Source: Fusarium oxysporum f. sp. lycopersici 4287 (taxonomy: Eukaryota; Ascomycota; Sordariomycetes; Hypocreales; Nectriaceae). Taken from it: 64,000 bases of DNA. This document shows, piece by piece, positions 11,571 through 42,099 of the stretch; the first letter of the stretch is position 1, and the number at the start of each line of letters is the position of its first letter. The notes under the pieces were generated by a model. That model saw only the letters and a program-made list of their open reading frames with translations. It did not search any database and was not told the DNA's origin. The position numbers and the translations under genes were made by a program. The DNA lies in contig NC_030990.1 of the NCBI RefSeq assembly GCF_000149955.1, positions 4,701,482 to 4,765,481 on the forward strand, in the 5' to 3' direction.

Positions 11571-13114
11571 ATGGCACTCATTAAGTTCCGCGGAAAACCG
11601 CTTGGTGGCTATAACATTCTAGTACGTCCTACTTCATTATGGCAGTGGACGAAATCTAATCTCTGTATCAACAGATCATCGCTTTTGCAACTTTTGGAAG
11701 TATCACCTACGGATACTGTTCGGCCATCATAGGGTCAACCCTCGGTCAACCATCCTTTCTCCATTACTTCGGTCTCGATACAGCCAGCAATGCAGCTGCT
11801 CTCATTGGCGCGATCAATGGACTCTTCCAAGGCGGTGGCCTCATCGGGACCTTGACCTTTGGAGCCGTTGCTGACAAGTTCGGTCGATGTAAGGCTATGT
11901 TCCTTGCAAGTGTACTCGCTATCATTGGCGGCGGCCTTCAAGCTGGTTCTGTCCACTTGTCAATGTACCTCGTCTCAAGGTTTCTGACAGGTCTTGCTAT
12001 CGGCGGGCTCGTCATGCTTGTGCCTCTTTGGCAGAGTGAAGTTGCACCTCCTCATGCTCGTGGCCTCCTTGTTGGTCTTCACGGTGTTTCGATCTTGGTT
12101 GGATACTCATCATCGGCTTGGGTCGGATTCGGCTTTTACTTCGTGAATGCAGACGGAGCTCAGTGGCGCCCTCCTTTGGCTATACAGTGCTTGCCTCCCC
12201 TCATCCTCGCATGTGGTGTCTACTTCATTCCTGAGTCTCCCCGGTGGCTTATCGACAACGATCAGCACGAAAGAGCCGAGGCTGTTTTGCAGCGAATCTA
12301 CGGAGACTCAAGCGATCCCGATAACCATGCAGCTAGGGCTGAATTTGCCCAGATTCGCGCTCAGGTGGAGCTTGAACGTCACTTGCCATCCTCTTGGGCA
12401 TCCCTCTTCACGGTCCCCCATTATCGAAAACGAGCCTTGATTGGGTTTACCACTCTTCTCGCCGGCCAACTTACAGGAACGACCGTGATCAACAACTATG
12501 GTCCTTCTCTGTATGCAGCTCTGGGACATGGTGCTTCTGCTAGTCTCGCGCTCTCGGCTGGATGGTTGACCGAAGGACTTGTCTGCAATGCCATAAATGC
12601 CGTCCTTCTTGACTACGTTGGAAGGAAATGGCTGATGGTGACCGGTCTCATCGGCTGCGCCATTTCCCTTCTTGGTGTAAGCATCATGGTTGCTCTTTAT
12701 GGGGGCACGACAAATAAAGGTGGCAATTCGGCTGGTGTCTTCTTCTTGTATCTGCACTTCACCTTCTATGCCACCTGCATGGATGCCTCGACTTATGTGT
12801 ACGGCTCTGAGATCTGGCCTACCCATCTTCGAGGGAAGGGATTTGCGATATCCTGTGCCGGTCTTTTCGTTGGCTCTCTTACTCTTCTCGAGGCTGCACC
12901 GACTGCGTTCCAAACCATTGGTTGGAGGTTTTATCTAATCATGATGGCATTCACACTTATTTGTGCCATCATATTCGCCTTGTTCTTCCCTGAGACTAAG
13001 GGAATGACCCTGGAGGAGATTTCAGCTCTCTTCGATGATGAAGTTGCTATCGAGGCATCGAGTGATACTAAGGCCTTATCTATTAACAGCGACAAGGACA
13101 AGGTAAAGGTTTAG
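11571..13114 (+). CDS. MFS sugar transporter
   Basis: Exon 1 is 11571-11621 and exon 2 is 11675-13114, joined across a 53-nt intron (GTACGT donor); 496 aa. Signatures of the sugar porter family: ADKFGRCKAMF after TM2, ESPRWLIDNDQ after TM6, and FFPETKGMTLEEI at the end of the last helix. About 12 hydrophobic helices are visible. It sits between a divergent Zn2Cys6 regulator and a co-oriented intracellular beta-mannosidase. Uptake of manno-oligosaccharides or another mannose-containing sugar is therefore a reasonable inference, but the substrate cannot be read from sequence. Confidence 0.9.
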
Positions 13115-13574
13115 CATTATGTGTACCGGAATCTCTCATGTAATTATAATCGGGCTTGAGATATATTTCTTTCGATTATCTTGCATTTTAATCTGTTAAA
13201 ATATCTCTGAATAATTCGATACCTATGTATAATCGCGCACCGCAGTTCTTGATAGCCCCCAAAACAGAGTTTCACAGTTATTTGTTGCACCGCGGCTAGC
13301 ACGGATCTACATATTACCGCTTTAGTTAGCTGCTAGTGGAGATATGGGTACTTCACCTACCAATGTAAGACTGCACACGTATGATCATCAATCATGTTCT
13401 GGCGGATAAATCCCCGACTGGTTAATCCACTTTCGGCGTAACCCCCATAGTCAGAACATAAGTTGTAGGTTCCCCGCATCGACTGTCCGACTTTATTCAG
13501 AGGAAACACTTTGTTGGACATCTAGAAACCTTCATTGATTGTTCTCACCAAATATCTCTTCTCCCGCAGTGATT
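13115..13574. promoter_or_regulatory. Promoter region of beta-mannosidase
   Basis: No gene. It contains CGGATAAATCCCCG near 13403-13416, a CGG/CCG pair typical of Zn2Cys6 sites, whose GGATAA half resembles the reverse complement of the TTATCC in the repeated motif upstream. Confidence 0.35.
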
Positions 13575-16169
13575 ATGTTCCGTCAAATCCACTTGGAAAA
13601 AGGCTGGAAGTTCAAGCAAGCCAGTTCTCGGAACGATGGCACTGCTTCATCCTTTCTACCTGTCGCCCAGTTTCCAACTGTCGCTCATATTGATCTTTTG
13701 CATCACGAGTTGATCCCCGACCCCTATATCGACATCAATGAACTGAAGTGTCTTTGGGTCAATGATGCGGACTGGACATATCGTACCGAGGAGATCTCTC
13801 CAGTCGATCTGAAACCGTCTGAAAAGGCAGAGCTTGTCTTTGAGGGCCTTGATACAGTAGTTGACGTGTATCTGAACGATTCGCATATCTTGTTTAGCAA
13901 CAATATGCATAGGTCTCATCGTGTTGACGTTACCGATACGCTGCGGGGTAGAGAGAAACCATCTGTTCTTGAGCTGAGGTTCAGAGCTGCCCCAGCATAC
14001 GGTCGTTCGGAACGTGAGCGCATTGGATACAAGACAACAAAGTTTGGAAGAGGTGTCAACTTTGGCGGGTCTGAGAGACTGTTTGTCAGGAAAGCACAGT
14101 ATCATTGGGGTTGGGACTGGGGACCGGCCATCAACACTTGCGGTCCCTGGAAGCCTATATATTTAGATGTCTACGAGTCACGAATCTGTGATCTCCGGGT
14201 CACCCAAGACGTTGCCCCAGATCTCTCTTCTGTGGACATCAAAGTCGAAGCGCACTTGGAGGGTCACAACAGTATCAATGAGGTTCAGGTTCAGTTACTG
14301 GACGTTGAAACAGGGGCCATTGTGGTTGATGATAAAGCATCGAAATCGACTAAAGGGGCTCTATCCTTCACGATTAAGCTCAACAAACCGAAGCTGTGGT
14401 ACCCGTTCTTGTATGGAGAGCAAAGCCTCTATCTCCTCCAGGTCAGCATTCCGAATCATACTGTGAGTAGAAAGTTGGGTATCAGACGGTTGCGCCTACT
14501 GCAACACCCACTCAAGGATCAGCCAGGCACTTCATTCATCTTTGAAGTCAACAACATTTGTCTCTTCAGTGGCGGTTCATGTTGGATACCCGCGGATTTC
14601 ATGCTGCCGCGAGTGTCCAAGGAAACGTACGAGAAATGGATCACTCTTGCCAAGGCAGGAAATCAGTCTATGATTCGTGTCTGGGGAGGTGGGATTGTTG
14701 AGAGCGATGACTTTTATGATATATGTGACCGTGAAGGCATCATGGTCTGGCAAGACTTCTTATACGCATGCGGCAACTACCCTGGTTCGCCAGATTTCGT
14801 TGCTAATGTCAAGATCGAAGCGGAGCAACAAGTACAGCGTGTTGGTCACCATCCCTCTCTTGTCCTGTGGTGCGGGAATAATGAGGATTACATGTGTGCA
14901 GACGGAGATCGTTGCTGGGAGGTTGACTACAGTGACACGACTGGTCCATGGGATAAGACCACATTTCCAGCACGCGAGATTTATGAACGCACTCTCCCTT
15001 CCGTCATCAAAGCATCAGGCACTGATGTCCCGTATTGGATTAGCTCTCCTTATGGTGGAAGCTTCTCCAACGACACAACGGTTGGTGACACACATTGTTG
15101 GGATGTCTGGCATGGCAAGCTATCACCATACCAGGACTACAAGGCCTACACGTCCCGCTTTATCTCGGAATTTGGCTTCGAGTCAGCTCCCAGTCTCCAG
15201 ACTCTTCACCGAGCTATCACGTCTCCCAAAGAGCGCCATGGACAGTCGAGGACTTTTGACGTCCACGATAAAGGTCCCGGTCATCAAAGACGGTACCCAA
15301 TGTACATGGGTGAGAACTATCGCTTTCGAATGAATCCTCTCAGGGATTTCGTATACTGCACGCAGTTCCTTCAAGCCGAGGCGATGGCGTATGCTTATAA
15401 CTGTTGGCGACGTGAGTTCCGAGGGCCTGGGGAAGAGAACTGCGCTGGCGTCTTGGTCTGGCAGCTAAACGACATCTGGCCTGGTATTAGCTGGGCCCTC
15501 GTTGATGTTGACATGAATCCCAAACCAGCATACTACATCACTAAGCGAGCATTGGACAAGATGGTTGTTGGAATGGAACGAGTTGTCACCGAGAAGCCGC
15601 CTTATATCACCACTGGTTATCTCGATAAGAAGCACAAGGTCGACATCTGGGCTGTCAATGGCCATCTCCATGAGATGAGAGTCACGTTGGAGGTGAAGGC
15701 ATTTGATATCCAAAGTGGAAAGTCAATCGGATGGACACGCTCGGACGAGTCGAAGGAATATGCTTTAAAAGGAAACCGTTCAACTGAACTTTTGGCTGGG
15801 TTGGAGATTCCAAACCCAGATGAAACAGTGTTGGTTGCATATCTACGAGACATCTCATCTGGAGAACAAGTGGCAAGATGGGTGAGCTGGCCGGAGCCTC
15901 TCAAGTATGTGCACATGTCTTCTGATCTGAAGATCACTACGGAAATAGTGGACGATGGATCAGCAGTCATTGTGAGAGCCAATGCACCGGTTAAAGGAGT
16001 TGTGTTAAGTGCATCGGGCAGAGATGGCAAGAACCTGGTCTTTGACAACAACTTCATCGATCTGGTGCCAGACGAAGAGGTAAGAATCGGGGTCACGGGC
16101 CTTGTGGGGGATCGTATTGATGTTAGGTTTCTTTACGACTGGGAACTCGAACCGGGATTTGAGTTGTAA
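13575..16169 (+). CDS. GH2 beta-mannosidase, intracellular type
   Basis: A single intronless frame of 864 aa from the ATG at 13575; the frame is open further upstream but has no ATG there. Family features in order: N-terminal jelly-roll (LEKGWKFKQA), YHWGWDWGPAINTCGPW around residue 175, the acid/base region LVLWCGNNEDYMC, and the nucleophile region FISEFGFESAPS. Together these are diagnostic of GH2 beta-mannosidases, which release mannose from the non-reducing end of manno-oligosaccharides. No signal peptide, so it resembles the intracellular MndB type rather than secreted MndA. It follows a sugar transporter in the same orientation, suggesting import followed by intracellular cleavage. Confidence 0.93.
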   Translation: MFRQIHLEKGWKFKQASSRNDGTASSFLPVAQFPTVAHIDLLHHELIPDPYIDINELKCLWVNDADWTYRTEEISPVDLKPSEKAELVFEGLDTVVDVYLNDSHILFSNNMHRSHRVDVTDTLRGREKPSVLELRFRAAPAYGRSERERIGYKTTKFGRGVNFGGSERLFVRKAQYHWGWDWGPAINTCGPWKPIYLDVYESRICDLRVTQDVAPDLSSVDIKVEAHLEGHNSINEVQVQLLDVETGAIVVDDKASKSTKGALSFTIKLNKPKLWYPFLYGEQSLYLLQVSIPNHTVSRKLGIRRLRLLQHPLKDQPGTSFIFEVNNICLFSGGSCWIPADFMLPRVSKETYEKWITLAKAGNQSMIRVWGGGIVESDDFYDICDREGIMVWQDFLYACGNYPGSPDFVANVKIEAEQQVQRVGHHPSLVLWCGNNEDYMCADGDRCWEVDYSDTTGPWDKTTFPAREIYERTLPSVIKASGTDVPYWISSPYGGSFSNDTTVGDTHCWDVWHGKLSPYQDYKAYTSRFISEFGFESAPSLQTLHRAITSPKERHGQSRTFDVHDKGPGHQRRYPMYMGENYRFRMNPLRDFVYCTQFLQAEAMAYAYNCWRREFRGPGEENCAGVLVWQLNDIWPGISWALVDVDMNPKPAYYITKRALDKMVVGMERVVTEKPPYITTGYLDKKHKVDIWAVNGHLHEMRVTLEVKAFDIQSGKSIGWTRSDESKEYALKGNRSTELLAGLEIPNPDETVLVAYLRDISSGEQVARWVSWPEPLKYVHMSSDLKITTEIVDDGSAVIVRANAPVKGVVLSASGRDGKNLVFDNNFIDLVPDEEVRIGVTGLVGDRIDVRFLYDWELEPGFEL

Positions 16170-16742
16170 TGCTACCTCGTTGGGGTACATTATTGGGCGT
16201 CCATTACAATGCCTGATCATACCACGTCGATGGGATTGGCTAGCAAGAGTAACATAGGGTCCAATACCAATACGACCTCTTTTCCCTTCTCATATAAAAC
16301 TTATCTTGTGCAGTGTTCCGTCAAGTAATCGGCAGTACCGTTGCTTAAAAAGCACATGGGTTAGTAATTTGTGCATATTTTAAAGCGCAATGCTCATGGT
16401 GGAAAGCAAGGCTTTAATAACCTACAGCTTATACTCTTCCCGTGTATTGATCCAATTTACCAATTTCAAGGCTTCATAGTGGAAGATAAGCTTTGAGCTA
16501 CAGGTCTTAGCCGCAAAAGGTACAGTGGCGGTCAGGTAACCTAATAATCTAGTACCTCACTAAAAGTGTAGCGCTAGGCAAACGACAGGGCACTCCTTGA
16601 TGGGATCATCGATTCAGAAAATCTGGCGGTCTGAGCAGATCGAATGTTTCTCGAAAACGCAGAGACCTCAAAAACAAATTGTCTCATTAGCAACCAAGCT
16701 GTCCTTTTACTCATCAAATAAATCTCGATTACCTGGGAGAAT
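16170..16742. other. Intergenic, promoter of AflR-like gene
   Basis: No gene recognised between the beta-mannosidase stop and the AflR-like regulator. Confidence 0.45.
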
Positions 16743-18035
16743 ATGCACACCAACTCTCTTCTACTGCGAAAACACTACTCGTCCACAATGGTCCAAGCAA
16801 AACTCCGAGGCTGCTGTGATGGCTGCACCAAAAGCAAGCTCAAATGCAGCGGTGAGATGCCCTCTTGTCAAAGATGTCGGATACGAAGCCTGGACTGCGT
16901 ATACAGCAAGGCTCGCCGCGCTGGGCGTCCACGCCTCAAGCCCAAGCCAAGTAAAGCATCGATCGTTTGTTCTGTTGACCGGGAACCACGAATCGATCTC
17001 ACCAGCTACAGCGACCAACCTTTTAATGGTGTTCAGTGCTCAAAGAGCGAGCTGGTTCTGCCATCACTTCCAGATCTTGTACATTATTCACCAGACTCTC
17101 AAGATATCTCAGTTTTGATGCAAGATCCTTGGGCTTCAACGTCACGTCTCGGCTCAGATGTCACACAGCCCTCAAGCGTCTGCGACTTTGATGACTTGAT
17201 GCTGCAGGATATGCTGTTGAATAACCCTGAGGGCTTTGGCTCGGCATCTGCTATGACTCTGAAACAAGAGTGGAGTCAAGACAACACTCTATTTCACGAT
17301 GGCTTAGACGATACATGTCCAGGACATGGTGCAACTAGCGAGAGGCCACCCGGCCATACCTCCTCAAGCCCATCAGGGTTTTATAAAGTCACAATCCAGA
17401 ATACAGACGATACCAATAGCTATTTGACAGAAGTCGATATGGAGATCAATGCCATCATGGCCACAATCACGGATATCGCCAAACGACCAATCGGATCATA
17501 TCACCTCGACGACCACCCATGTGTAACCTCTTGGCCACAGCTACTAAGCAAAGCCCAACTACTCATGTATATCGCTGGGTCAAAAAGCTCATTTTCCTTA
17601 CGTCTGGATGCAGTGCTGCAAGTCTCATGGACTGCCGAGCAGGTACAAAAGCGAATTTCGGAATGTCCGACCTGCATGTCTCGAGGCATGGAGTTATCTA
17701 GCATGCTTGCTTTGCTGTATGACTAGGTCTCATCACGGATTGCAGGCGCTCTTGAGAATCCTGCCGCTATCCAGTGTTGTTGTTTGACGATCGGCAACTC
17801 AACCCTGACAGGGCAGAACGGCATTATCGGCGTATATGAGCTCGTCAAATGCAGGATAACGAGAGCGATTCATGTGATACAGAGCATAAACAACACAAAT
17901 TCTTCCATAGGGGAAGGGGGCCCGAGTCGGCTATATCCAGTGGCCCGACTTATGCTCGAAGTGGCTAAGAGTCGATTAGAAGCTATTTCGGGAACGATAG
18001 ACCTTTTAGAAAGCGAGCAGTACTGCAGTATATAG
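16743..18035 (+). pseudogene. AflR-like Zn2Cys6 regulator interrupted by TAG
   Basis: The ATG at 16743, or more likely 16788, opens a frame with an AflR-type zinc cluster: CCDGCTKSKLKCSGEMPSC, then CRIRSLDCVYSKARRAGRPR. The frame stops at TAG 17724-17726 after about 313-327 aa. The same frame then stays open for another 103 codons to 18035 and looks like the rest of an AflR-like domain (SSRIAGALENP, then IGVYELVKCRITRAIHVIQ). No intron of acceptable size and phase removes the stop. CAG to TAG by one C-to-T change restores the frame, so this is probably a recent nonsense allele. AflR-type proteins usually control secondary-metabolite clusters. A truncated product that still binds DNA is possible. 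Confidence 0.7.
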
Positions 18036-19282: not shown

Positions 19283-20761
19283 TTATCTCGTCCACCACTT
19301 TTGGCTCTTCAAAGTCAGAATTCCAAAAACTGAGGTCCAACTCAAAACCCCCAACTGAAACATCCCCGCAAGCCAGGAAAGAACCAAGCGCCACACCAGC
19401 CTACCACTTGTGTGATAGATTTGTAGCCCGCCAACATCAGAAACATATTCCGTATCTTTTTCTCGAAGGGCATCTGGAATAAGCATGAAGCTCCTCCAAA
19501 CTGTCAGGATCGAGATCTCCAATAATATCCAAAGCGCATGTCTGGGGTATAGAATCACACATCTCAGCAACGTGTAGGTGATCAAGAGCATCAGTGGCCC
19601 TTTCAGCCAGATGCATGCCACGTTGATAAATGGATATATGCTTCCTGTACCGTCTTTTGTGATGAATGGCTTGTCTTCCTGTTTTTCCTTGTCCACGAAT
19701 TCCAAGGACTGAACGCGTCTTGGCCGCATTGCAAGCCATAGTCTCAATGTCTTCTGCACTGTTAAAGCCGGATATCCCATGCAGAGAAAGGTATAGTTTG
19801 TACGTTCCCATCGAGAAAACATCAACAACGCCTTTTCAAGAGTTTCAGGAGCCATTGTATGAACAACGGCGTTACTCTGATAAACCGTTCTCCAACCGTC
19901 GCAGAGAATGCGGTATGCTAGCTCCATATCTTCGCCATGCTTCAGAGGTGAGCCAAGGAAGGTGCTTGCACATAGCCTGTCGATATGAGATTGCACTGCA
20001 TCTGCACGAAATGCCGAGAAGGCCCCCGGGAGAATCGTGACAAACCCCTCAGCTGATAGTGCGGAGCGAGGCAGGTTACCGATATGGTCGAAGACGATGT
20101 CAAGTAGACGCGGCAAAAGGCTCCTGAATGAGAAAATGCTGTGGCTCGAGATGTTCAAGACAGCCAGATGTCCAGCTACAGCACCGATCGAAGGATCCCT
20201 CATCAGAGGGCTCACGATGTTGCGAAGTGCACCCTTCTCCACGACGCTATCTGAGTCAAGGGAGATGATGATACTTCCGAGTGCAGTAGCGAATCCCGAC
20301 TGAATGGCTTTCCTCTTGCCCATGTTTACGGCATGTTGTAAGAGTCGAAGTGTTATGCCGCAAATGGAGACTGAGCCTGCAGCCTTGTTTACATGTTCCC
20401 ATGTATCATCAGTAGAGCCATCATCGATAACAATCAACTCAATCCTGTCTTTAGGATAGTCTGAGAGTTCGATAGACTTGATTGAGTTTTTAACGAACTC
20501 GGACTCGTTGTAGACTGGTATAACGATGCTGATGAAGGGTAGCTTGTCATCTTTTGAGGGAGGTTGCACAGGCTCATATCTGATCCATCGCCAGACCATG
20601 TGCACGTACTCGATCTTATAGAAGACAGCGATAAGTTGAAGTATTATTGCGGGCAGCCCAATAAATATCGGAGGTGGACTTGGCCATGGTATAAAGGATA
20701 GTAGAAGCAATCCAAATATGTTCAAGATGCCAAACAAAAGGCGAAGTTGAGAGTCTGTCAT
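19283..20761 (-). CDS. Membrane GT2 glycosyltransferase, NodC/hyaluronan-synthase-like
   Basis: Intronless, 492 aa from the ATG at 20761. Two N-terminal hydrophobic segments (residues about 7-50) precede a GT-A domain: FISIVIPVYNES, the nucleotide-binding VIDDGSTDDTW, the SLDSDS metal site and GSPLKHGEDMELAYR. The RW of the processive-synthase QxxRW motif is present (LLMFSRWERTNY), but its glutamine is replaced by methionine. Several C-terminal membrane helices follow. This is the layout of chitin-oligosaccharide synthase (NodC), hyaluronan synthase and related inverting processive enzymes that use UDP-sugars and export the chain. It is the same orientation as the acyltransferase gene and near a CE4 deacetylase. 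The actual sugar is unknown. Confidence 0.85.
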   Translation of the reverse strand: MTDSQLRLLFGILNIFGLLLLSFIPWPSPPPIFIGLPAIILQLIAVFYKIEYVHMVWRWIRYEPVQPPSKDDKLPFISIVIPVYNESEFVKNSIKSIELSDYPKDRIELIVIDDGSTDDTWEHVNKAAGSVSICGITLRLLQHAVNMGKRKAIQSGFATALGSIIISLDSDSVVEKGALRNIVSPLMRDPSIGAVAGHLAVLNISSHSIFSFRSLLPRLLDIVFDHIGNLPRSALSAEGFVTILPGAFSAFRADAVQSHIDRLCASTFLGSPLKHGEDMELAYRILCDGWRTVYQSNAVVHTMAPETLEKALLMFSRWERTNYTFLCMGYPALTVQKTLRLWLAMRPRRVQSLEFVDKEKQEDKPFITKDGTGSIYPFINVACIWLKGPLMLLITYTLLRCVILYPRHALWILLEISILTVWRSFMLIPDALREKDTEYVSDVGGLQIYHTSGRLVWRLVLSWLAGMFQLGVLSWTSVFGILTLKSQKWWTR

Positions 20762-21673
20762 TTCCAAATGTTACTTCTCTAGTTTCAATTTAAAGGCATA
20801 GACAATGAGCCGAACTGGATCTAGAATGATTGAGCCCTGAAGCTAAAGGAGTGGCAGTAAACGTTGATTTTGTTGCATTTAGCCTGTGGCAAAAATTGCC
20901 CGAGCGTTTGGTAAGTTTACTGGTGAAGCTTAAACTTTGTGAAGTCTATCAGTTACTCGAACGACTTTACCGTCGGGTCTTTTTCCATTGGTCCCGAAAA
21001 GATAGTGAATGTAAAAAAGTGTTGAGATCAAATGTCATAGCCTTCATAGGCTCGCCTCAAGTTGAGAATTTGCCGAGGCCCTACTTAGCCATCGGGCTGC
21101 CCGCTCTAATGTAACGTAGAAAGAGGAGCTCGGAATACGACGCAAAGGTCCATCGGTCTGGTCTCTATGAAGCCGATGGAAACTTCGTGACAAGGTCTTG
21201 GCTATCGAGCTCAATACGAGGACTATACACTCATGCAGGAGTTTCACACCGCTTCTTTCAGTGAGCACGTCTTTGCAAGCCGAAACCAACTCTCATAATA
21301 ATCATGTTTAGGGACATGACTGATATCATTCACATAATAGGCGGTGACAAAGAAGGGTGCGAATTTACTGGATCAACGTAGGCTTTCGTTAGGTTGTTGA
21401 GTCCAACAGCCCAAAATAGTTACAAGTGTTCCTTCAAGCTTGTGGATGACACCAATGCCGAAAACCACTTAATTTCTTACAGCTACATGAATAATATCAC
21501 CCAGGAAGCAATCAAAGGCAGATTCAAAGTAGTTATACATATTCATGTATATACATATATACATTTCGCTCAGATTCGAATCATTTTGCATGCATGTGAT
21601 TAATATTGCTCTATCCAGGTACCACAAGAGTATGCAACACCAACTATACAAAACATGCATGCTTCAAACTGCA
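20762..21673. other. Spacer between GT2 and acyltransferase genes
   Basis: About 910 bp. A 94-codon frame at 20830-21114 has no recognisable motif. It probably holds the GT2 promoter and the 3' region of the acyltransferase gene. Confidence 0.4.
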
Positions 21674-23115
21674 TTAGACAAGCGACGAGCCCTTGATTTC
21701 CTCCTGTCGTATGTAGGCAACAAATTGAGAGGTGAACCGTTCAGCTGCTGTGTCAACGTATCTCGTCCATATCTCAGCAAGTCCGTATAAAATCCCCAGC
21801 CAAGCCGGTAGGCAGAATAGTAGCCACGTATTACCTGCGTATTCAAGCTTTGGAGACGCGCCTTCTGGTTGCTGAATCTGTAGATTGGGTGGTAGAGCAG
21901 TTCCATACATCATCCATGTGAGTAACCATCTTAGTAGCGTGCCATGGAGAAGGTACACCGCGAAGGATCGCTTCCCAAGCCATACCAAGACACGGTGGGA
22001 TAGAATGTCCGTATACCCAGGGAGTAGGGCTCCGCCAATTGTTAAAAGGCAGAACCCGAAGGAAGATGCAAATTTCGGAAATTCGGAGTCCTTGGGGACA
22101 ATTGCTGATAGGATCTGATCTTGCCAGCGCGACCAAGAAACCAGTTCAATGCGGCTTTCAGGGAACGATGCGATGAAGAGGCCGACTCCCACAGACAAGA
22201 AACCGAGAAAAGGGATGTACCGAGACTTGCTCCATGAGATGCGCTGAGACACTCGAGAGTTGTGTAAATCATTCATGAAGACACCCCACCAGAATTGCAT
22301 AAAATACGCTACAGATTTGTCAGCCATGTCCGCAGCAGCGCATTTGAAGAAGACTACTTACGTCTCCCGCAAGCCCAAAGGTAGGCCCATAGTAGTAACG
22401 ACGAACCCATTCTGAACTTTACCTGCACCTTTGCAGTCGCAGTGATGAACAGTAGCACGAAGATTCCGCCTTTGAAGAGTTCGAAGAGCGTGCCCTGGTG
22501 AACGTCGTACTTATTCCCAGCTCCGGTCCAGGTGTTGAAGATATTGATAAAAAGCCGTCTGACTGCTAAAGATATCGGTAACTTGTCTTGGACTGTTTGT
22601 GTCAGATAATAGCTATTGGTCATCTTTGCAGCCTGGAAGAGGCCCAGTTGTGTCGCAGTCCATGCCAAAGCTGTTGCGATGGCACTTGGATATAATAGTC
22701 GTGGAAGCCGCCGAAGCGCAGACTTGGAAACGCAACTCCAGCCTGCTTCATAATTGCCCCGTCGAAAGAGCGCCAACGGCTTCAACGCACATACATAGCC
22801 TGTGACGTAGATGAATATGATGACACCCAGTCGGCCTTGGATCATGATCCGAAGAAAAGGAAGTTGGAGTAGTCTTGGTCTCAATCCTTCGCCAGAGACT
22901 GGAGAGTAGAGATCAAGATCAAAGGCACGTGTAACATGGGCGATCCAAACCAGCGTTGACGCGATGCCACGGAGTCCCTAGATACCGGTTAGCTGGGTAG
23001 TCATAATATCACGCTCAGCAAACAAAGCTGCTTGATACGCTGTCTATAATTTTCTCGGCTTTATTAATTAACATACCTCAATCCACTGGATGTGTCCTTC
23101 TTGTCTGGAAGTCAT
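21674..23115 (-). CDS. Acyltransferase-3 family membrane protein (OafA/NodX-like)
   Basis: Three exons: 23077-23115, 22362-22977, 21674-22308; 429 aa. The short first exon ends QWIE and splices in phase to GLRGIASTLVWIAHVTRAF, the family signature near the N-terminus with its conserved histidine. Many hydrophobic helices follow, including VIIFIYVTGYVCAL and RSFAVYLLHGTLLRWLLTW. Acyltransferase-3 proteins transfer acetyl or longer acyl groups from the cytosolic side onto exported sugars or lipids; NodX and OafA are bacterial members. It is divergent from the CE4 gene (start-to-start 731 bp) and co-oriented with the GT2 gene, so acylation of the GT2 product is an attractive inference. No frame damage is seen. 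Confidence 0.82.
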
Positions 23116-23846
23116 ATTTACTTAATAATGCATATGAAATAAGGAGATACAGAATCCTACTACCGCCCTGTTACTGGTATAATGTTAGGTTATATGAGAA
23201 ATCAATTGTCTACAGACGACAGCCACCATTTAACGGGAAACGTCCCGATTCTCCTACTATCAGTCACTCGATGTAAGTTCTTTGGTGATGAGGCGGCTAC
23301 TTGGTCAATTTGCCCGAGAGGATATCCTAGTTGTCTCTACCAAATTCTCCACATGGGATTGCCGCTATGTTACCTTGGAAAAATATTGCCCGAGAGCCAA
23401 AGTTAAAGGTTTACCAAACGTCACTTCTTGTTACATTGCTACCAGGAACTGGGTTCATGCACGGACAAGCACACGTTTCTTACTCCACTACTTAGCGTTT
23501 GGTAGTCTGAACTCCGGGCGCTCGTACAGACATCAAGGCAATGATGTGACAAAGGTGACATCGGGACTACCGGACTGGTGTGATATTGAAAGCTTGTCTT
23601 CGAGCGGTGAAAGATGTTCTCTTACAGCAGGTACCGAAGCGTTGCCGTGAGCCGAGTGACGCTACCTCGGGTGGAATGCTCGGAAGATTGTATGCCACTT
23701 GCAAGGCGAAGATCTACAGCAGGTCTTGTGACTACAGATTTATACAGAGGTAGGTATGCTAGTACAATTCGTATCCTGAAATTTTGCTAGACTCTTTTCG
23801 CCTTTAGTTTTCTCATCTACTCACGTCACAAAAGCCAACTCAAGCC
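23116..23846. promoter_or_regulatory. Divergent promoter, acyltransferase and CE4 deacetylase
   Basis: A 731-bp spacer between two divergent starts. Only short frames are present. Co-regulation of the two genes from here is an inference. Confidence 0.4.
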
Positions 23847-24811
23847 ATGTCCAGCTTACAACCAGCTCATAAAGGGATCTTGATTCTATTCGGAATCGCC
23901 CTAGTTTTCTTCTAGTAAGGTGCTCAGACTCGTGAGTCTGGGAGTTTCTAATCTTTTCCAGCTTCCAGAAAAGCTCATACTATGGCTCATCCTTTACCTT
24001 GAACCAACGCACAAAGGTACACAGTAAGTCAAACTTAGCGCGTGTCGCAACAATGAAAGCCCTCGATTAATCTATGTAGGACGATGTGTTACACCACGAA
24101 CCATCGCCCTCACATATGATGATAATCCCAATGAGGGGATATACGACCTCCTGTCGCTCTTGAAGAGCTATAACGCAACAGCGACATTCTTTCCAAATGC
24201 TCCGCACCATTACAATACGTTGAAACTGGATAAATACATCCATGATGCACATGCAGCTGGGCATCAAATTGGAATCCATACGTCAGTTTCACTAAGACCT
24301 GTGCAGTTTGTTAGGCTAATGCTCCTCAGGTGGGACCATATCAACCTAGATAATGTTGGCCACAAAGAAGCTTTGGATAATATTGTAAGCTATTTATATC
24401 GTACCCTTATTCTTGGTTGCTAACAGCTCGCAGGAGAAGATGAATGCATGGTTGCATGATGTAATTGGGGTGCGATCCAGTTTCGTCAGGCCCCCCTATG
24501 GCGCATGTGAAATTGACTGCAGGATGGCCTTGACTGGTGGTGGGTATACCATTATACAGTGGAATATGGACACATTAGACTGGATCTTCGGAACAGACGA
24601 CAAGTTTGAGTCCAGCGTTGAGATTATCAAGCATTGGGTAGGCAATCAGCCTGAAATCGACAAGGACGACTATGCAGGACCTATAGTCTTGATGCATGGC
24701 CGATACCATCCAAGCGCCACAGTCGTAACACAATATCTATTAGATCTCTTTACCTCTAAGGGTTTCAAATTTGTGTCAATTTCGGAATGTCTGGGCTTTG
24801 ATAGAAATTAG
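23847..24811 (+). CDS. Membrane-anchored CE4 polysaccharide deacetylase (NodB-like)
   Basis: Five exons: 23847-23914, 23962-24023, 24080-24281, 24330-24384, 24434-24811; 254 aa. An N-terminal hydrophobic segment (GILILFGIALVFFYF) is followed by a polar stalk and no obvious cleavage site, suggesting a type II membrane protein. The NodB-homology motifs are complete: TIALTYDDNPN (metal and base aspartates), HTWDHINLDN (metal histidines), VRPPYGAC, DTLDWIF and PIVLMHG. CE4 enzymes remove N-acetyl groups from GlcNAc in chitin-type polymers or oligomers. The short single-domain form, without chitin-binding modules, and its neighbours (GT2, acyltransferase) suggest it acts on a glycan made at the same membrane. 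Confidence 0.88.
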
Positions 24812-31057: not shown

Positions 31058-31881
31058 TTAACAGAAGTTCTGTCCGTTGCCGTTGAAGGTTCCAGACTGG
31101 TAAGCACCACCAGCGTTACCAAGGCAGTCAGCTATGAATCGTTAGCAACTCTTCTCGTATCGTCTGGCCTTCTTTTTCCAAACTTACCAACAGTGACGAG
31201 CTTGAGGTTGTTCTGCTTGGCCCAGTTGATCAACGCAGGAGTGAGAGTCTGCACCGTGCTGGCGTAGGTCTCGTGCATGAGGGGAATGTGACCGTTTCCA
31301 CCAGCACCAGCCTGCTGGAACTTCTGCAGGCTCTGCTGTGCCGATTGACCATTCCAGTCACCCGAGTCGACATCGTCGGTGATGACCTTGTATCCGAGCT
31401 GCTGCATGGTGGGCAGCACGTTACCGCCGGTGGCGAGGTAGGGAGGTCGCATGTAGGCGGGCTTCTTGCCAATGATATTGACCAAGGCCTGCTCCACCTT
31501 CTGCATCTCCTGCTTCAGCTGGTCGGTGCTGAGACTTCCGAAGTTCTGGGGGTGAGTCCAGGTGTGACTGGCGATCTGGTGGCCAGAGTTGTAGGCCTTC
31601 TTGATGGCAGCCTGTTGGTTGTAGATGCAGCCGTAGAGCGTGCCGGTCAGGAAGAGGGTGGCCTTGGCACCAGCGTTGTTGAGGATGTCGACGAGCTGGC
31701 TGGTGTACTGTCCAGGGCCGTCATCGTAGGCGAGAGCAAGGACACCGGGTCTGTTGCATTGGCGGATGACAACACCAGCTGCCTGGCGGTTGAAGAGCTC
31801 AACGGGGTCCTCAATAGCAGCGCTGGCAACGGTGCCAACGAGGAGGAAAGTGCTAACAGCTGCCTTGAGGAATGACTTCAT
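31058..31881 (-). CDS. Secreted CE4 chitin deacetylase
   Basis: Exon 1 is 31188-31881 and exon 2 is 31058-31131; 255 aa. A signal peptide (KAAVSTFLLVGTVASAA) is followed by a short propeptide ending in NRQ. The NodB domain is complete: VLALAYDDGPGQYT, the metal-binding HTWTHPQ, YMRPPYLATGG, DDVDSGDWN and IPLMHETY. The last exon gives a Cys-containing tail (DCLGNAGGAY ... QNFC). This is the usual form of secreted fungal chitin deacetylases, which convert chitin to chitosan and can hide the wall from chitinases and plant receptors. Codon use is strongly biased, suggesting high expression. A TATA box lies about 90 bases upstream. It is distinct from the membrane-anchored CE4 at 23847. Confidence 0.93.
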
Positions 31882-32794
31882 TGTGGGTGAATATGTACGA
31901 AAAGATATATACAAAGTGAAGAAAGAGAAGTGATTGACAAGGCAATATTAATTGTTGGTGCCAAGGAGTGTTTATATAGGGATGATGAACGAGGTATTGT
32001 TTCAGGAAACATATTCTCCATTTGAGCCGGCCCGAAACTATTCCTCTTAAGATCACAGGATTGCATAGATCAATCAGGCCTTGGACCCCAGTGGGAAGAT
32101 GTCCTGAAACGCTGCTATGTGTTTTCAGGCTAAATTCGCGACCCCCTGTGCCCCTAGTAATTAAACCACAAACGGACGGAATAACCCATGATTCGACGGG
32201 TGATTTCAGAGGGTCAACGATACAGGGCAGCTGATAACAGCCGGGACCTGATCTGGAACTTCGGCATCAGTGCCACGTGGTTCGACAATGCGGAGACTCA
32301 GTATGACATGTTGCCATTCTGAGGTTCAGCTTTGACTTTATTTGACGATCCGGGCATTGTTCCTCCGGCATTGCAGTGCAAGCGGTTAAACTGGGACCGG
32401 TTTCATCCTTCAGAAATGGTTACTCGCTCATGCCGTGGCTCCACAGAGAGATCCACAAGTCGATATCACTAATAAACGGTCAGCTTCCAAGTAAATTGTC
32501 AATTAATTCGGCATTGAACCTGACAAGCCTCCTTCATTTTACGTATTTTACCCGGTGGCAAAATGCAAACTAAGCACAGATATTGAACCCCAGATCTAAT
32601 ATAACCCATTCCCCTCATTCTTCTCAGCACCCAACCCTCTTCTGTACCGATATTGCAACCTCATCAACTTAGCCACGCCATTTATGCCGGGTCGGAAGGA
32701 TAATCGATCGTGAAGTTGCCGAAGAACCATGCGCATTTCTCGGAATGTCGATACCCGCACGGCTATTCCCAAGCTCTGTTCTGTCGTGACCTCA
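31882..32794. other. Intergenic, promoter of chitin deacetylase
   Basis: No gene recognised; holds the TATA box listed next and the 3' region of the lactate-dehydrogenase-like gene. Confidence 0.45.
31971..31978 (-). promoter_or_regulatory. TATA box of chitin deacetylase
   Basis: The minus strand reads CCTATATAAACACT here, with TATATAAA about 90-97 bases before the ATG at 31881. It is the clearest core promoter in the window and agrees with the strong codon bias of the gene. Confidence 0.55.
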
Positions 32795-36448: not shown

Positions 36449-38123
36449 TTATGCTGCAGCTGCAGCTATGAGTGCTGCACCAGTCCCAGAACCGTCTCTT
36501 GTAAGCTCTATTTTTATCCTTGCTTCGTTGGCCTTCCCAATTGCTTCAACGTCGTGCAGAGCAGTACGCATAAAGCTCTCGAAAGCAGTATGGAACTCAA
36601 AAAGTGAGCCATCGACCGCGATATCAATCACCTCATCTGCCAGTTCTGAAGACTCGAGGGTGTCTTTGGAGTCATATGACGATCCGCTTGTCGAAATGGG
36701 TGATGGCTCTTCTGGGCGTATGCAGCCAAACATTCGCCGTATAAATCGAGTCAAGGTGTTCCGCCGGCTGCCGATCTGCGTTGATGTCGACTTGTCTTGT
36801 ATTTGATGTGTATGAGCTCCCAGACCCGTCTTCTGAGACATACCTGAAGCATCAAGCCTGCCAGACTGTATGAGAATTGCAGCAAGACCAGCGCCCACCA
36901 ATCGAGCAGATCGTTTCACGATAACAGTAGCCAGCATCTGGATAGTTCGCAAGTCCCTCGATGTCACACCTGTTGCTACTAGCGTGTCGGTGATACAGGA
37001 CAAAGCTGACAGCGAATTCTCTGGTTTTGACTCTGCAATCTTGGACAAGAATGCGCTTTCAATACCCATATGTATGTAAACGGGGCTTCCATCCGGAAAT
37101 GACATGTCTAATGCACCGTGGCGCATCAGGTCCAAGAGTGACAAGCGCAGTAGCTCCCCAAGATACATGCCGGAGACCATCTTCTCAAGAAGACCACATC
37201 CAGGATCTGAAGAAGACTCATCGACGAGTGTGTCGAACCGTGTTTGAGGAAGAACTTTCAGCCCGTCGTCCCATGATCCCCATTCCGTGTTGACTACCAT
37301 GATCCCGTCACTATTAGAGTGATGTGCGCGATCGGCCGTTGTATCGAGTCTCTGGATGTTTGACATGCGCTCAATATACGCAGCATTTGTGCCGGTCCCG
37401 AGGATTATAGATGCCAAGGTAGAGTTCTTTGTTTTCGAGGTATATGCTCTAGTAAGCAGCGTTCCGACTGCATCGTTGGCCAAAACGCGAACTCGCACTG
37501 GTAATGAGATCTCATCAATCGCTTCCTGTAGTAAGGCGCAAGGATCTAGACCCAGGGTGCTTGGGATATCCCATCCTTTGTCCCAGTGAACGAGGGTGCC
37601 GCTAGAAATGGATGTCTGTTCACAAGTGAAGCTGAATGTGAAGCCAAGATTGAAGCATGCCTCGGAACTGTCACTACTCCCACTACTCTTATGCTCACGA
37701 AGAAGGTCTTGGATCTTCAAGGCGATGAAATGGAATAGAGGTTTATGACTTGAATGCACTCGAATATCATGAGGGACAAGGTGCTTCCTTTGAAACACAT
37801 CGAAAGTCGAGTCGCCATGAAGGGTAACAGCACAAACTCGACAATTTGTACCGCCCAAGTCGACTGCAAGAAAAAGGCCCTTCTCTCGGCCACTGGGGAT
37901 TTGTGTGACAAAAGAGGGTATCTGATAAGCATGCTTGTCCTTCAAACCATGTTCTGATAGGTTGGGTCAGTAGATATACACGAGATAGCAAGTCACAATA
38001 CATACTTATCTGCTTAACAAAGTAATTCGTTATCTCCTGTATTTTCTCGCTCCAAACCTCGAACTCTTGGGCAACCGATTGAACAGTTGCCTGCTGGCTG
38101 TCCCCTAAGCCATCCTCCAACAT
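36449..38123 (-). CDS. HXK3-like hexokinase, probable N-acetylglucosamine kinase
   Basis: Exon 1 is 38006-38123 and exon 2 is 36449-37953; about 540 aa. Hexokinase family features: the phosphate-binding FLAVDLGGTNCRVCAV, FTFSFTCEQ, VLANDAVGTLL, ILGTGTNAAYIE, NTEWGSWDD and the C-terminal AVDGSLFEFHTAFE and GSGTGAALIAA. A Ser/Thr-rich, basic insertion (QIGSRRNTLTRF ... TSGSSYDSKD) precedes the last block; divergent HXK3-type kinases have such insertions. In Trichoderma and Candida the HXK3/HXK1 type phosphorylates GlcNAc. The nearby glucosamine-6-phosphate deaminase supports an amino-sugar role. An in-frame ATG at 38138 is an alternative start. Confidence 0.82.
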
Positions 38124-39340: not shown

Positions 39341-41011
39341 ATGAAATGCGTCCTCCAGGGTAGCAGTGAAGCATGTCGTCGATGTCGCCGAGCAGGACTT
39401 CCTTGTGTGTTTGTGCCCAGAGCGAATGCAGCTCAGTTACCCTCGCTCTCAGGGACTCTGGATCTAGACTTCAAGAACAATGTCCTATCTAGGTTAAAGG
39501 TTGTCGAGGAAAGACTATCCATTGTAGCTGATGGTGATATGGATTTTGGTGCTGTGGGAATGTTCTCTGCTGTTTCCGAGCAGTCACCAGAGCCAACCCC
39601 CGATGGACCACTCTGGAATGCGATTGTACTCCTACAGAGGTGCTCCCCAGCCGTGCCACCATCGATTTGGCAACGTGATACTATTGAGTCACTCTGGTCC
39701 TCGTACGTTTCCTCTCTTTCCATTGTAAAAGTCATTAGTAACGTGTATTTGTTCCAGCTTTCATGACAGGATGCCAGGGCTGCATTTCATGCCCGACAAG
39801 CAAACATTTTCGACGCCGCAGCCAATCCTACTTGCATCCATTCTCTACTGTTCAAGCAGTCGTGGGCCACCGGACGTGTTAGAAATTGCTCCCCAATTCT
39901 TCACCGTTTTATGCAACGCCATCGCTCAACTGAGCATACCCAGCAGTGAGATTGGGACACCTCGAGAGTCAACTGTCTCCCAAGAGGAGTGGGCTTTCCA
40001 GACTGTCCTTGGTATAGTCCTTGCTGGTTTGCTGACAGAGGGTAATATAAAGGAAACTGGAAACTGGATTGCCATTGGCTACCGGCTGATGCTGGACTAT
40101 TGCCCTGCTCATGTTGATGACACGTCAAGAGAATGGCGCAAACTATTCAGCGGCATTCAGATCGTTGACTTGGAGCACTCATCGATTTATCTGTCCTGTC
40201 CAGTGATTCCCATTGAAGCACCGCTTCCAATTTTACGCATGTCACCACTGGATCAGTTATATAAGCTTTCCCGTATGATGCATACCGGGTTGAGTCACTT
40301 TACTGGGCGAAGATTACCAACTATCTGGTCCTGCTTCCAGGAATCTAGCCTGAGCTACCATGGTTCAGCCACAAGTTTCACTGCCATTGATGGAATACTT
40401 ATCAAAGATTGGGCAAAGCAACTAGATGACTGGCTTCAGGAGTTCAAGGGGAAGATGACAGAACCTGATGACCAAAGCAGCAAGTTGGTTCTTCGTCAAT
40501 ATGTCCTGCATCGACTACTTGTGCTATCAATCTACCATCCTGCTAGAAGCGGCAATCTTTGGGCGCATAGCATAACGTCAAATGAGCAGGAAGAGCTCCT
40601 CCTGTCAGCGAGGGCGACTCTAAAGCTTCACCAGCATGATGACTCCATCTGGGCTAACTGGGACTTGATCATGATAACGTGGGCGGCATTGATCGTTCTG
40701 CAAGGATTACAAGGGGGAGTGGGAGAGATAGATGGTAAGCATTATCGTATATGTTCGGTTCAAGCGCTAACCGTTTTCTAGACATGAGAAACATCAGGTT
40801 GCACCTTGATATTCTAAAACAAAAGAACGAACCCAAGCCAAGTCTTTGCGATAAGCTTATTGCGCGACTAGAGGACAGCCTCCAAGATATCAGCACGCCC
40901 GATTTTACTTACGTGCAGCCAGGCCATCCAACAGTCATGGACCCCACATTTGATTACTCTTGGCAATTATTCGATCAAGTAAATTTGCAGCAGATACAAT
41001 TTCCTGGATAA
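39341..41011 (+). CDS. Zn2Cys6 regulator of the amino-sugar group, 5' end uncertain
   Basis: From 39341, exons 39341-39702, 39758-40734 and 40782-41011 give 522 aa with a fungal TF domain (GPLWNAIVLLQ near residue 100, LVLRQYVLHRLLVLS near 360). It starts inside the zinc cluster: KMKCVLQGSSEACRRCRRAGLPCVF. Just upstream, bases 39323-39340 encode NCRKQK in frame but follow a TGA at 39320. A plausible first exon lies at 38490-38570, ending ARKAC before a GTGGGT donor; joining it to GAAACTGC would give a perfect KACRNCRKQKMKC, but no AG acceptor exists there and the intervening 750 bp is far longer than other introns. The 5' end is therefore disrupted or very unusual. Position between hexokinase and deaminase genes suggests GlcNAc control. 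Confidence 0.65.
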
Positions 41012-41043: not shown

Positions 41044-42099
41044 TCACATTCCAACAGGGAACGTCACAGACCGAACCCTCATCGTAGGCGCTATACGTGA
41101 TGCCATGTTATCAGGCTTCAGGTCACCGTCTTCGTCCCCGTCAGCTGTCAGTGTGGGTGATGGAGGAAGGTGACCCGAGACCTCCCTCTGCCTGATAGTT
41201 TTTTCAACTCCGTGAAAATACTGTATTCGTCAGTCTTGTTGATGGAGACAACTTGGGTTGGGTACTTACGTTCACTGTCTTTACCTTCAACTCGAGGGTA
41301 GCGTCTCTGTCCACCACCACCATGCTCTTTGGATGTAACTGGAGGCATGAGAGTGTGCAAAGATGGCTGACTCCACCCTCTACCGCTTGCTGAATAGCAA
41401 TTGCTTTCGAGGCACCAGTGGCAATGATGACGACTTCTCGTGCATCCATGACAGTCTGTACTCCAACAGTCAAGGCCATGTCGGGCACTGCCTCGATATC
41501 ATTGTCAAAGAATCTCGCATTTGCAATCCGGGTCTCATATGCAAGTGACTTGATTCGAGTTCGGCTGACAAGACTAGAGCCTGGTTCATTGAAAGCAATA
41601 TGACCGTCTGTTCCTATACCTCCGAGGAAGAGCTCGATGCCACCGAATGACTTGATCTTATCCTCATAAGCCAAGCACTCGGCGAAGAGGTCAGGGGCAT
41701 TCCCATTGAGCAAGTGAATATTCTCTGGTTGGATATCGATGTGTTTGAAGAGATTGTGGTGCATGAAAGAGTAGTATGACTCGGGATGCTCGCGGGGTAG
41801 GCCGACGTATTCGTCCATATTAAATGTCACGACATGCTGGAAGGATATCTTGGAAGCTTTGTATGCTTTGATCAAGTCATTGTATATATGGAGAGGGCTG
41901 CTTCCGGTAGGAAGGCCGAGGACGAATGGCTTTTCGGATGTAGGATTGAAAGCACGAATGCGGTCTGAAACATTGCAGTATCAGCATATCTTGTTTAATC
42001 TAGACTGGAGACTTATATAAGCAGGCAAGGCTTACTGATAATGTAGTCAGAGATGTATTGAGATGCCTCTTGGGGGCCTTCGCGTATTACGAGACGCAT
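41044..42099 (-). CDS. Glucosamine-6-phosphate deaminase
   Basis: Three exons: 42036-42099, 41270-41964, 41044-41220; 311 aa. Typical sequence throughout: [88 protein letters not shown] and the C-terminal [10 protein letters not shown]. The enzyme converts GlcN-6-phosphate to fructose-6-phosphate and ammonia, the last step of GlcNAc catabolism. Its neighbours, an HXK3-like kinase and a regulator, match part of the GlcNAc cluster known from Trichoderma and Candida; the GlcNAc-6-phosphate deacetylase and transporter are not in this window. Stops of this gene and the regulator are only 32 bp apart, tail to tail. Confidence 0.92.

What the first reader, a model, noticed from the sequence alone, without database searches (positions are those of the whole stretch)
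19283..24811. Fungal GT2 / acyltransferase-3 / CE4 locus: the Nod-factor-type enzyme set in one place
Three adjacent genes encode a NodC/hyaluronan-synthase-like membrane GT2, an acyltransferase-3 membrane protein (NodX/OafA family) and a membrane-anchored NodB-homology deacetylase with all five motifs. In rhizobia, GT2 plus CE4 plus acyl transfer makes lipo-chitooligosaccharides, and fungi are reported to make such signals by unknown genes. A de-N-acetylated, acylated chitin- or hyaluronan-like glycan made at one membrane is a coherent inference. Seen: motifs, intact frames, gene order. Inferred: a shared pathway and product. An ordinary modified wall polysaccharide is the main alternative.
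Basis: partly seen in the sequence, partly recalled or inferred. Interest (0 to 1): 0.85.

Follow-up and report, generated by a model that had tools for sequence, protein, structure and literature searches.

The report
Fungal gene trio for modified glycan
A Fusarium genome carries three neighbouring, evolutionarily linked genes that probably build, partly deacetylate and acylate an amino-sugar chain at the cell surface; they are not the bacterial Nod-factor set, but they are a concrete, testable lead on unexplained fungal surface sugars.

Summary
Window 19283-24811 (Fusarium oxysporum; closest proteins 98-100% identical) encodes an intact membrane GT2 (492 aa), an acyltransferase-3 (AT3, 429 aa) and a membrane-anchored CE4 deacetylase (254 aa, all five motifs). 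One correction: the GT2 has MxxRW where NodC, HAS and PgaC have QxxRW. The linkage recurs: six contigs from five species hold at least two of the three genes, and one (F. austroafricanum) holds all three.

The Nod reading is only partly supported. The GT2 lies on the NodC/HAS side of the tree, but its 99% identical twin P0001 scores 110 bits against a NodC cut-off of 550 (real NodC: 750-761). The CE4's best solved relative is a chitin deacetylase. No NodA was found (a weak negative). The same three functions occur in the Streptomyces mat and staphylococcal ica sets, which make an adhesive GlcNAc polymer.

Best explanation: an apparently undescribed fungal cluster for a partly deacetylated, acylated, GlcNAc-containing surface glycan (0.6). 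Lipo-chitooligosaccharide synthesis is possible but unlikely (0.07).

The parts
19283..20761 (-). GT2 gene, single exon, 492 aa: membrane glycosyltransferase with a hyaluronan-synthase-like fold, of an MxxRW subfamily on the NodC/HAS side of the family
21674..23115 (-). AT3 gene (exons 23115-23077, 22977-22362, 22308-21674), 429 aa: transmembrane acyltransferase; several relatives are named 'hard surface induced (protein) 3'
23847..24811 (+). CE4 gene (exons 23847-23914, 23962-24023, 24080-24281, 24330-24384, 24434-24811), 254 aa: membrane-anchored polysaccharide deacetylase with all five motifs
23116..23846 (.). 731-bp divergent intergenic region between AT3 and CE4; a shared promoter is possible (inference, not tested)

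Best explanation
A gene cluster, apparently undescribed, that makes a modified amino-sugar glycan at the fungal plasma membrane. The GT2 polymerises an N-acetylhexosamine-containing chain, most likely GlcNAc from UDP-GlcNAc, in the cytosol and passes it through its own membrane channel. The anchored CE4 removes some N-acetyl groups outside. The AT3 moves an acyl group from acyl-CoA across the membrane onto the chain. The likely role is a chitin- or chitosan-like surface or matrix glycan for adhesion or growth on surfaces. Inferred: substrate, sugar linkage, polymer or oligomer, topology, role. The 0.6 leaves out the three specific products listed as rivals.
Confidence: 0.6

Rival explanations
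1. Lipo-chitooligosaccharide synthesis: the GT2 makes short chitin oligomers like NodC, the CE4 frees an amine like NodB, and the AT3 either O-acetylates like NodX or, more boldly, N-acylates the free amine in place of NodA.
For: GT2 is on the NodC/HAS side. NodC outscores PgaC/IcaA in 5 of 6 fungal-type GT2s scanned (by 19-29 bits in four of them, by 4 in P0006; in the window's twin P0001 PgaC leads by 2). How and where fungi make LCOs was called an open question in 2020 (PMC7403392, Discussion section read whole). HGSNAT, the AT3's nearest solved fold, N-acetylates glucosamine (PMC11357348, start of abstract in the listing).
Against: NodC 109.7 of 550 bits and NodB 59 of 240 bits; real ones reach 750-761 and 328. 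No NodA match (weak negative). LCOs were found in 53 of 59 fungal species tested (PMC7403392, start of abstract), whereas the named fungal relatives of this GT2 come from seven ascomycete genera (capped list). HGSNAT as nearest fold says little, since only HGSNAT and GWT1 of that superfamily appeared.
Confidence: 0.07
2. PNAG-type beta-1,6-GlcNAc polymer, a fungal counterpart of ica/pga/mat.
For: Same three activities as icaA, icaB and icaC (PMC5972031; PMC9558356; passages). PgaC_IcaA is the top NCBIfam model for P0001 (112.1 bits). Antibody to PNAG is reported to protect mouse eyes against Fusarium solani (PMC5963004, passage citing another paper).
Against: 112 of 422 bits; real PgaC 648. 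PgaC and the CE4-GT2 fusions lie on the other side of a 100/99 branch.
Confidence: 0.12
3. Hyaluronan-like alternating polymer.
For: Best structural matches include HAS; one relative is named hyaluronan synthase in its source (P0009).
Against: HAS signature QQxRWSKS absent; a separate HAS-like gene that has it lies at C2:4545950. None of the six UDP-sugar dehydrogenase matches of the genome is in the window.
Confidence: 0.06
4. Neighbours by descent with no shared pathway.
For: AT3 relatives are listed from many more genera than GT2 and CE4 relatives.
Against: Linkage kept between Fusarium and Neonectria (GT2, AT3), and in a diverged F. proliferatum copy (GT2 70%, CE4 54% identical to the window's).
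Confidence: 0.15

Closest known systems
Streptomyces matAB with a downstream icaC-like gene (PMC5972031, passages)
   Same: CE4, GT2 and AT3 together; filamentous organism; a GlcNAc polymer for hyphal aggregation
   Different: CE4 and GT2 are fused there; the Streptomyces CE4-GT2 fusions L048 and L060 in my tree fall on the PgaC side (that these loci are mat itself was not checked)
Rhizobial nodABC plus nodX
   Same: GT2 on the NodC/HAS side, a CE4 deacetylase, and AT3 as in NodX
   Different: NodC and NodB cut-offs not met, no NodA found, MxxRW instead of QxxRW
icaADBC / pgaABCD
   Same: GT2, CE4 and (in ica) AT3
   Different: PgaC/IcaA cut-off not met; other half of the tree
Fungal chlorovirus-like chitin synthase clusters with UDP-sugar dehydrogenase and polysaccharide deacetylase (PMC5122149, section 8 read whole)
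   Same: a fungal GT2 synthase next to a CE4
   Different: those are chitin synthases with a dehydrogenase; here AT3 instead. Two places of similar content exist elsewhere in this genome (class not checked)
ZtGT2/FgGT2 (PMC5653360, passages)
   Same: a fungal GT2 needed for hyphal growth on solid surfaces
   Different: probably a different GT2: the window GT2 finds only itself and one 25% HAS-like hit in its genome; I did not look for the ZtGT2 orthologue itself

Membership tests
Nod-factor synthesis | NodC equivalog score (TIGR04242, cut-off 550) | tested here: not met
   109.7 bits for P0001, 99% identical to the window GT2; real NodC 750-761
Nod-factor synthesis | NodB equivalog score (TIGR04243, cut-off 240) | tested here: not met
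   59 bits for P0121, identical to the window CE4; real NodB 328
Nod-factor synthesis | NodA N-acyltransferase present | tested here: inconclusive
   no PF02474 match in the genome, but no control genome rang; the profile gives R. tropici NodA 321 bits
Nod-factor synthesis | product is a lipo-chitooligosaccharide | not testable with these tools
   needs mass spectrometry
PNAG synthesis (ica/pga) | PgaC/IcaA equivalog score (TIGR03937, cut-off 422.3) | tested here: not met
   112.1 bits for P0001; E. coli PgaC 648
PNAG synthesis (ica/pga) | GT2 groups with PgaC | tested here: not met
   split by a 100/99 branch, 100/100 in the first tree
PNAG synthesis (ica) | CE4 and AT3 next to the GT2 | tested here: met
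Hyaluronan synthase | QxxRW within QQxRWSKS | tested here: not met
   MFSRWERT
Hyaluronan synthase | HAS-type fold with channel helices | tested here: met
Chitin synthase | PF03142 score (cut-off 27) | tested here: inconclusive
   28.9 bits for the whole protein, just over the cut-off, but no stretch passes on its own; PMC5122149 says this domain also rings in non-chitin-synthase GT2s
Chitin synthase | QxxRW | tested here: not met
   MFSRW
CE4 deacetylase | five CE4 motifs | tested here: met
   PF01522 86 bits
AT3 / TmAT acyltransferase | PF01757 with R-X10-H, RxxR and SxxxY | tested here: met
   61 bits, cut-off 31; motifs; their role from PMC9833829 and PMC12423673, passages
AT3 / TmAT acyltransferase | TmAT fold | tested here: inconclusive

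The most novel reading that the evidence does not exclude
The trio is a dedicated anabolic locus for acylated chito-oligosaccharide signals in a fungus: the MxxRW GT2 makes short GlcNAc chains, the CE4 frees an amine, and the AT3, with an HGSNAT-like transmembrane mechanism, N-acylates it in place of NodA.
Probability: 0.05. Interest if true: 0.92.

Novelty: new variant of a known kind. Interest (0 to 1): 0.55.

Why it matters
How fungi make lipo-chitooligosaccharides was called an open question (PMC7403392 Discussion), and I know of no fungal gene behind the PNAG reactivity reported from fungi (recalled, not searched as such). This locus gives three named genes whose deletion tests either idea directly. 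I also know of no characterised member of the MxxRW GT2 subfamily (recalled), which occurs in fungi and in diverse bacteria, so its product would be informative in either kingdom.

Tried and rejected
Rejected: NodC, NodB, PgaC and HAS membership (see membership test). Rejected: inheritance of the trio as one bacterial operon; 0 of the 21 nearest bacterial GT2 loci (L025-L045) showed a CE4 or AT3 in the stretch held. Some of those contigs are only 5-10 kb long, and the profiles were built locally: the fungal AT3 profile missed the AT3 of L048, so a second was built from L048. Pfam scans of the genomes of 14 of those 21 loci found CE4 in 13 of 14 and AT3 in 9 of 14, but contig numbers could mostly not be matched to the loci; only L040 could be checked (taking its C1 to be the one chromosome), with none within 10 kb.

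Led nowhere: viral contigs gave only weaker GT2 matches (best row 25%). A Colletotrichum gene-transfer paper (PMC4320630, word search only) holds none of six terms. PMC13390465 (passages) was not relevant. The AT3 profile has no PDB sequence relative. No NodC or PgaC structure appeared among the VIA rows shown; that absence says nothing.

Colletotrichum acutatum P0035 joins the GT2 to a CE4 in which, by eye, the first metal histidine is a serine. A near-identical protein, P0016, lacks the CE4, so P0035 is probably two neighbouring genes in one model; I count it only as a hint of adjacency.

Not found in print: the rows listed by paper searches (one search found 0 papers) gave none describing this trio. 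Only listed titles, starts of abstracts and the passages named were seen. Supplementary files could not be read.

Rows dropped: of 120 listed GT2 relatives 27, and of 80 loci 27, went into the first tree (59 rows with 4 references and 1 fragment). The second (54 rows) left out CvHAS_frag, L044, L059, L068, L071 and P0035 and added the HAS-like gene of L010. Six of the 16 'fungal' rows (P0014, P0015, P0016, P0023, P0024, P0030) have no named source and are called fungal only because they group there. L055 also has CE4 and GT2 in one ORF but was not scanned with Pfam.

Full report
Check of the observation. The window belongs to Fusarium oxysporum by protein identity (P0001 99%, P0121 100%, P0144 98%), on contig C5 (4.91 Mb) of a 61.2-Mb genome, about 190 kb from the contig end. 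Splicing by eye on GT-AG introns gives an intact GT2 (492 aa, one exon), AT3 (429 aa, three exons) and CE4 (254 aa, five exons). The CE4 model is identical to a public protein, and the GT2 and AT3 models have the lengths of their nearest public relatives. Pfam confirms each family. GT2 and AT3 are in tandem on the minus strand, 912 bp apart; AT3 and CE4 are divergent across 731 bp.

Motifs. The CE4 has all five motifs. The AT3 has R-X10-H, RxxR and SxxxY, which papers tie to acyl-CoA binding and transfer (passages). R16 and H27 are invariant in the 58 relatives aligned; over all 120 listed, R-X10-H is found near the start in 105, the other 15 being mostly models with a missing or altered start. 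The GT2 has DDGS, DSD and GED but Met in place of Gln in QxxRW. Met is there in 116 of 120 listed relatives, with 4 unmatched, while NodC, PgaC, Chlorella virus HAS and the CE4-GT2 fusions have Gln. In the CE4 relatives, 17 of 23 read T(Y/F)DDNP, 3 read TYDDGP and 3 gave no match; the DDNP group includes Fusarium, Bipolaris, Corynespora and a Phaeosphaeriaceae, and Fusarium and Bipolaris also have the GT2.

Where the GT2 belongs. In a tree of 54 rows the 16 fungal-type sequences (10 named fungi, 6 unnamed) form one group (100/100), next to 18 bacterial-type MxxRW sequences (89/79, moderate); both join NodC and HAS-like rows (100/99), away from PgaC and the CE4-GT2 fusions. A first tree of 59 rows agrees on the fungal group and the main split (both 100/100) but leaves the order within the NodC/HAS half open. 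Long branches (L064, L049, the F. oxysporum HAS-like gene) make details there unsure. For P0001 the NCBIfam scores for NodC (109.7) and PgaC/IcaA (112.1) are nearly equal and far below both cut-offs; in the five other fungal-type GT2s scanned NodC leads, by 4 bits in P0006 and 20-29 in four. Named fungal relatives among the 120 listed come from Fusarium, Neonectria, Colletotrichum, Microdochium, Seiridium, Bipolaris and Pyrenophora. A bacterial origin of the fungal group is possible but was not tested further.

Linkage in relatives. No fungal contigs could be read, so I compared longest-contig lengths and locus tags. Six contigs hold at least two of the three: F. austroafricanum 117,002 (all three); F. 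proliferatum ET1 3,966,834 (GT2, CE4); F. oxysporum 5,137,128 (GT2, CE4); F. proliferatum 22,557 (GT2 FPRO04_14240, CE4 FPRO04_14237); Neonectria ditissima 216,829 (GT2 AK830_g3879, AT3 AK830_g3876); F. decemcellulare 47,382 (CE4 FDECE_7311, AT3 FDECE_7310). Of the 13 best GT2 groups (P0001-P0013), 5 show such a partner; the other 8 cannot be judged, because each group names one contig only. On the contigs of several megabases the distance is unknown. The window genome shows no second copy of the trio, and its other AT3 matches share no contig with a CE4 match.

The same set elsewhere. L048 (Streptomyces) carries CE4, GT2 and AT3 in one 1105-aa ORF. L057, L060 and L061, the other Streptomyces among the 80 loci, have a CE4-GT2 ORF with an overlapping AT3 open frame. 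Five other actinobacterial CE4-GT2 ORFs (L052, L053, L054, L056, L066) had no AT3 in the ORF, and none was found beside them with the L048-derived profile. L051 and L076 carry GH18, CE4 and GT2. The mat paper describes MatB as CE4+GT2, an icaC orthologue downstream, a PNAG product, and a need for hyphal aggregation and adhesion to glass (passages). So the three activities form a working unit in another filamentous organism, though with a GT2 from the other half of the family. In the window's own genome, chitin-synthase-like frames lie beside CE4 and UDP-sugar-dehydrogenase matches at C5:4.18-4.19 Mb and C10:1.576-1.583 Mb, resembling what is reported for chlorovirus-like fungal chitin synthases (PMC5122149 section 8).

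Mechanism. Shown: three intact genes, their recurring linkage (inferred as above), a HAS-like predicted synthase fold, AT3 motifs, one N-terminal membrane segment on the CE4 by hydropathy. Inferred: cytosolic polymerisation with export through the GT2, deacetylation outside, acylation across the membrane, a surface or matrix role. The name 'hard surface induced 3' of several AT3 relatives is suggestive; an F. graminearum gene of that name stands in a table of a section on genes shared with known in-planta sets (PMC4960244, passage), but its orthology was not checked.

Nod factors. The finding's analogy is reasonable as chemistry but fails as membership. NodC, NodB and PgaC controls pass their own cut-offs by wide margins while the window proteins, or their near-identical twins, do not. 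NodA was not found (weak negative). LCOs were reported in 53 of 59 fungal species (PMC7403392, start of abstract), wider than the spread seen for this GT2 in a capped list. LCO synthesis by this locus stays a low-probability, high-value idea.

Verdict. A real, recurring and, as far as the searches named go, undescribed fungal locus of a kind known from bacteria; product unknown. Interest 0.55.

Noticed in passing
window 31132-31914 (-): A second CE4 deacetylase (PF01522, 5e-30) with a signal-peptide-like start by eye, 6 kb from the trio.
   Followed up: partly
window 36449-37945 and 41204-41875 (-): A hexokinase-like gene and a glucosamine-6-phosphate-deaminase-like gene, with regulator-like frames by eye between them (39341-40781). 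Below-cut-off nagA-like pieces lie near another deaminase-like match at C8:1.705-1.711 Mb, so the window pair may be an extra glucosamine-use group.
   Followed up: partly
L048, L057, L060, L061: Streptomyces CE4-GT2 ORFs with AT3 fused or in an overlapping frame; L051 and L076 carry GH18-CE4-GT2.
   Followed up: partly
L010 (own genome C2:4545950): A separate 720-aa HAS-like protein with QQTRWSKS, distinct from the window GT2.
   Followed up: partly
own genome C12:1.685-1.691 Mb and C11:1.834-1.839 Mb: Two more chitin-synthase-like frames close to UDP-sugar dehydrogenase matches, without CE4 matches on those contigs.
   Followed up: no
P0152 (F. decemcellulare): AT3 gene model joined to a PF04488 sugar transferase, perhaps a fourth cluster neighbour there.
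   Followed up: no
window 11852-17726: Sugar transporter, GH2 beta-mannosidase and Zn2Cys6 regulator side by side.
   Followed up: no
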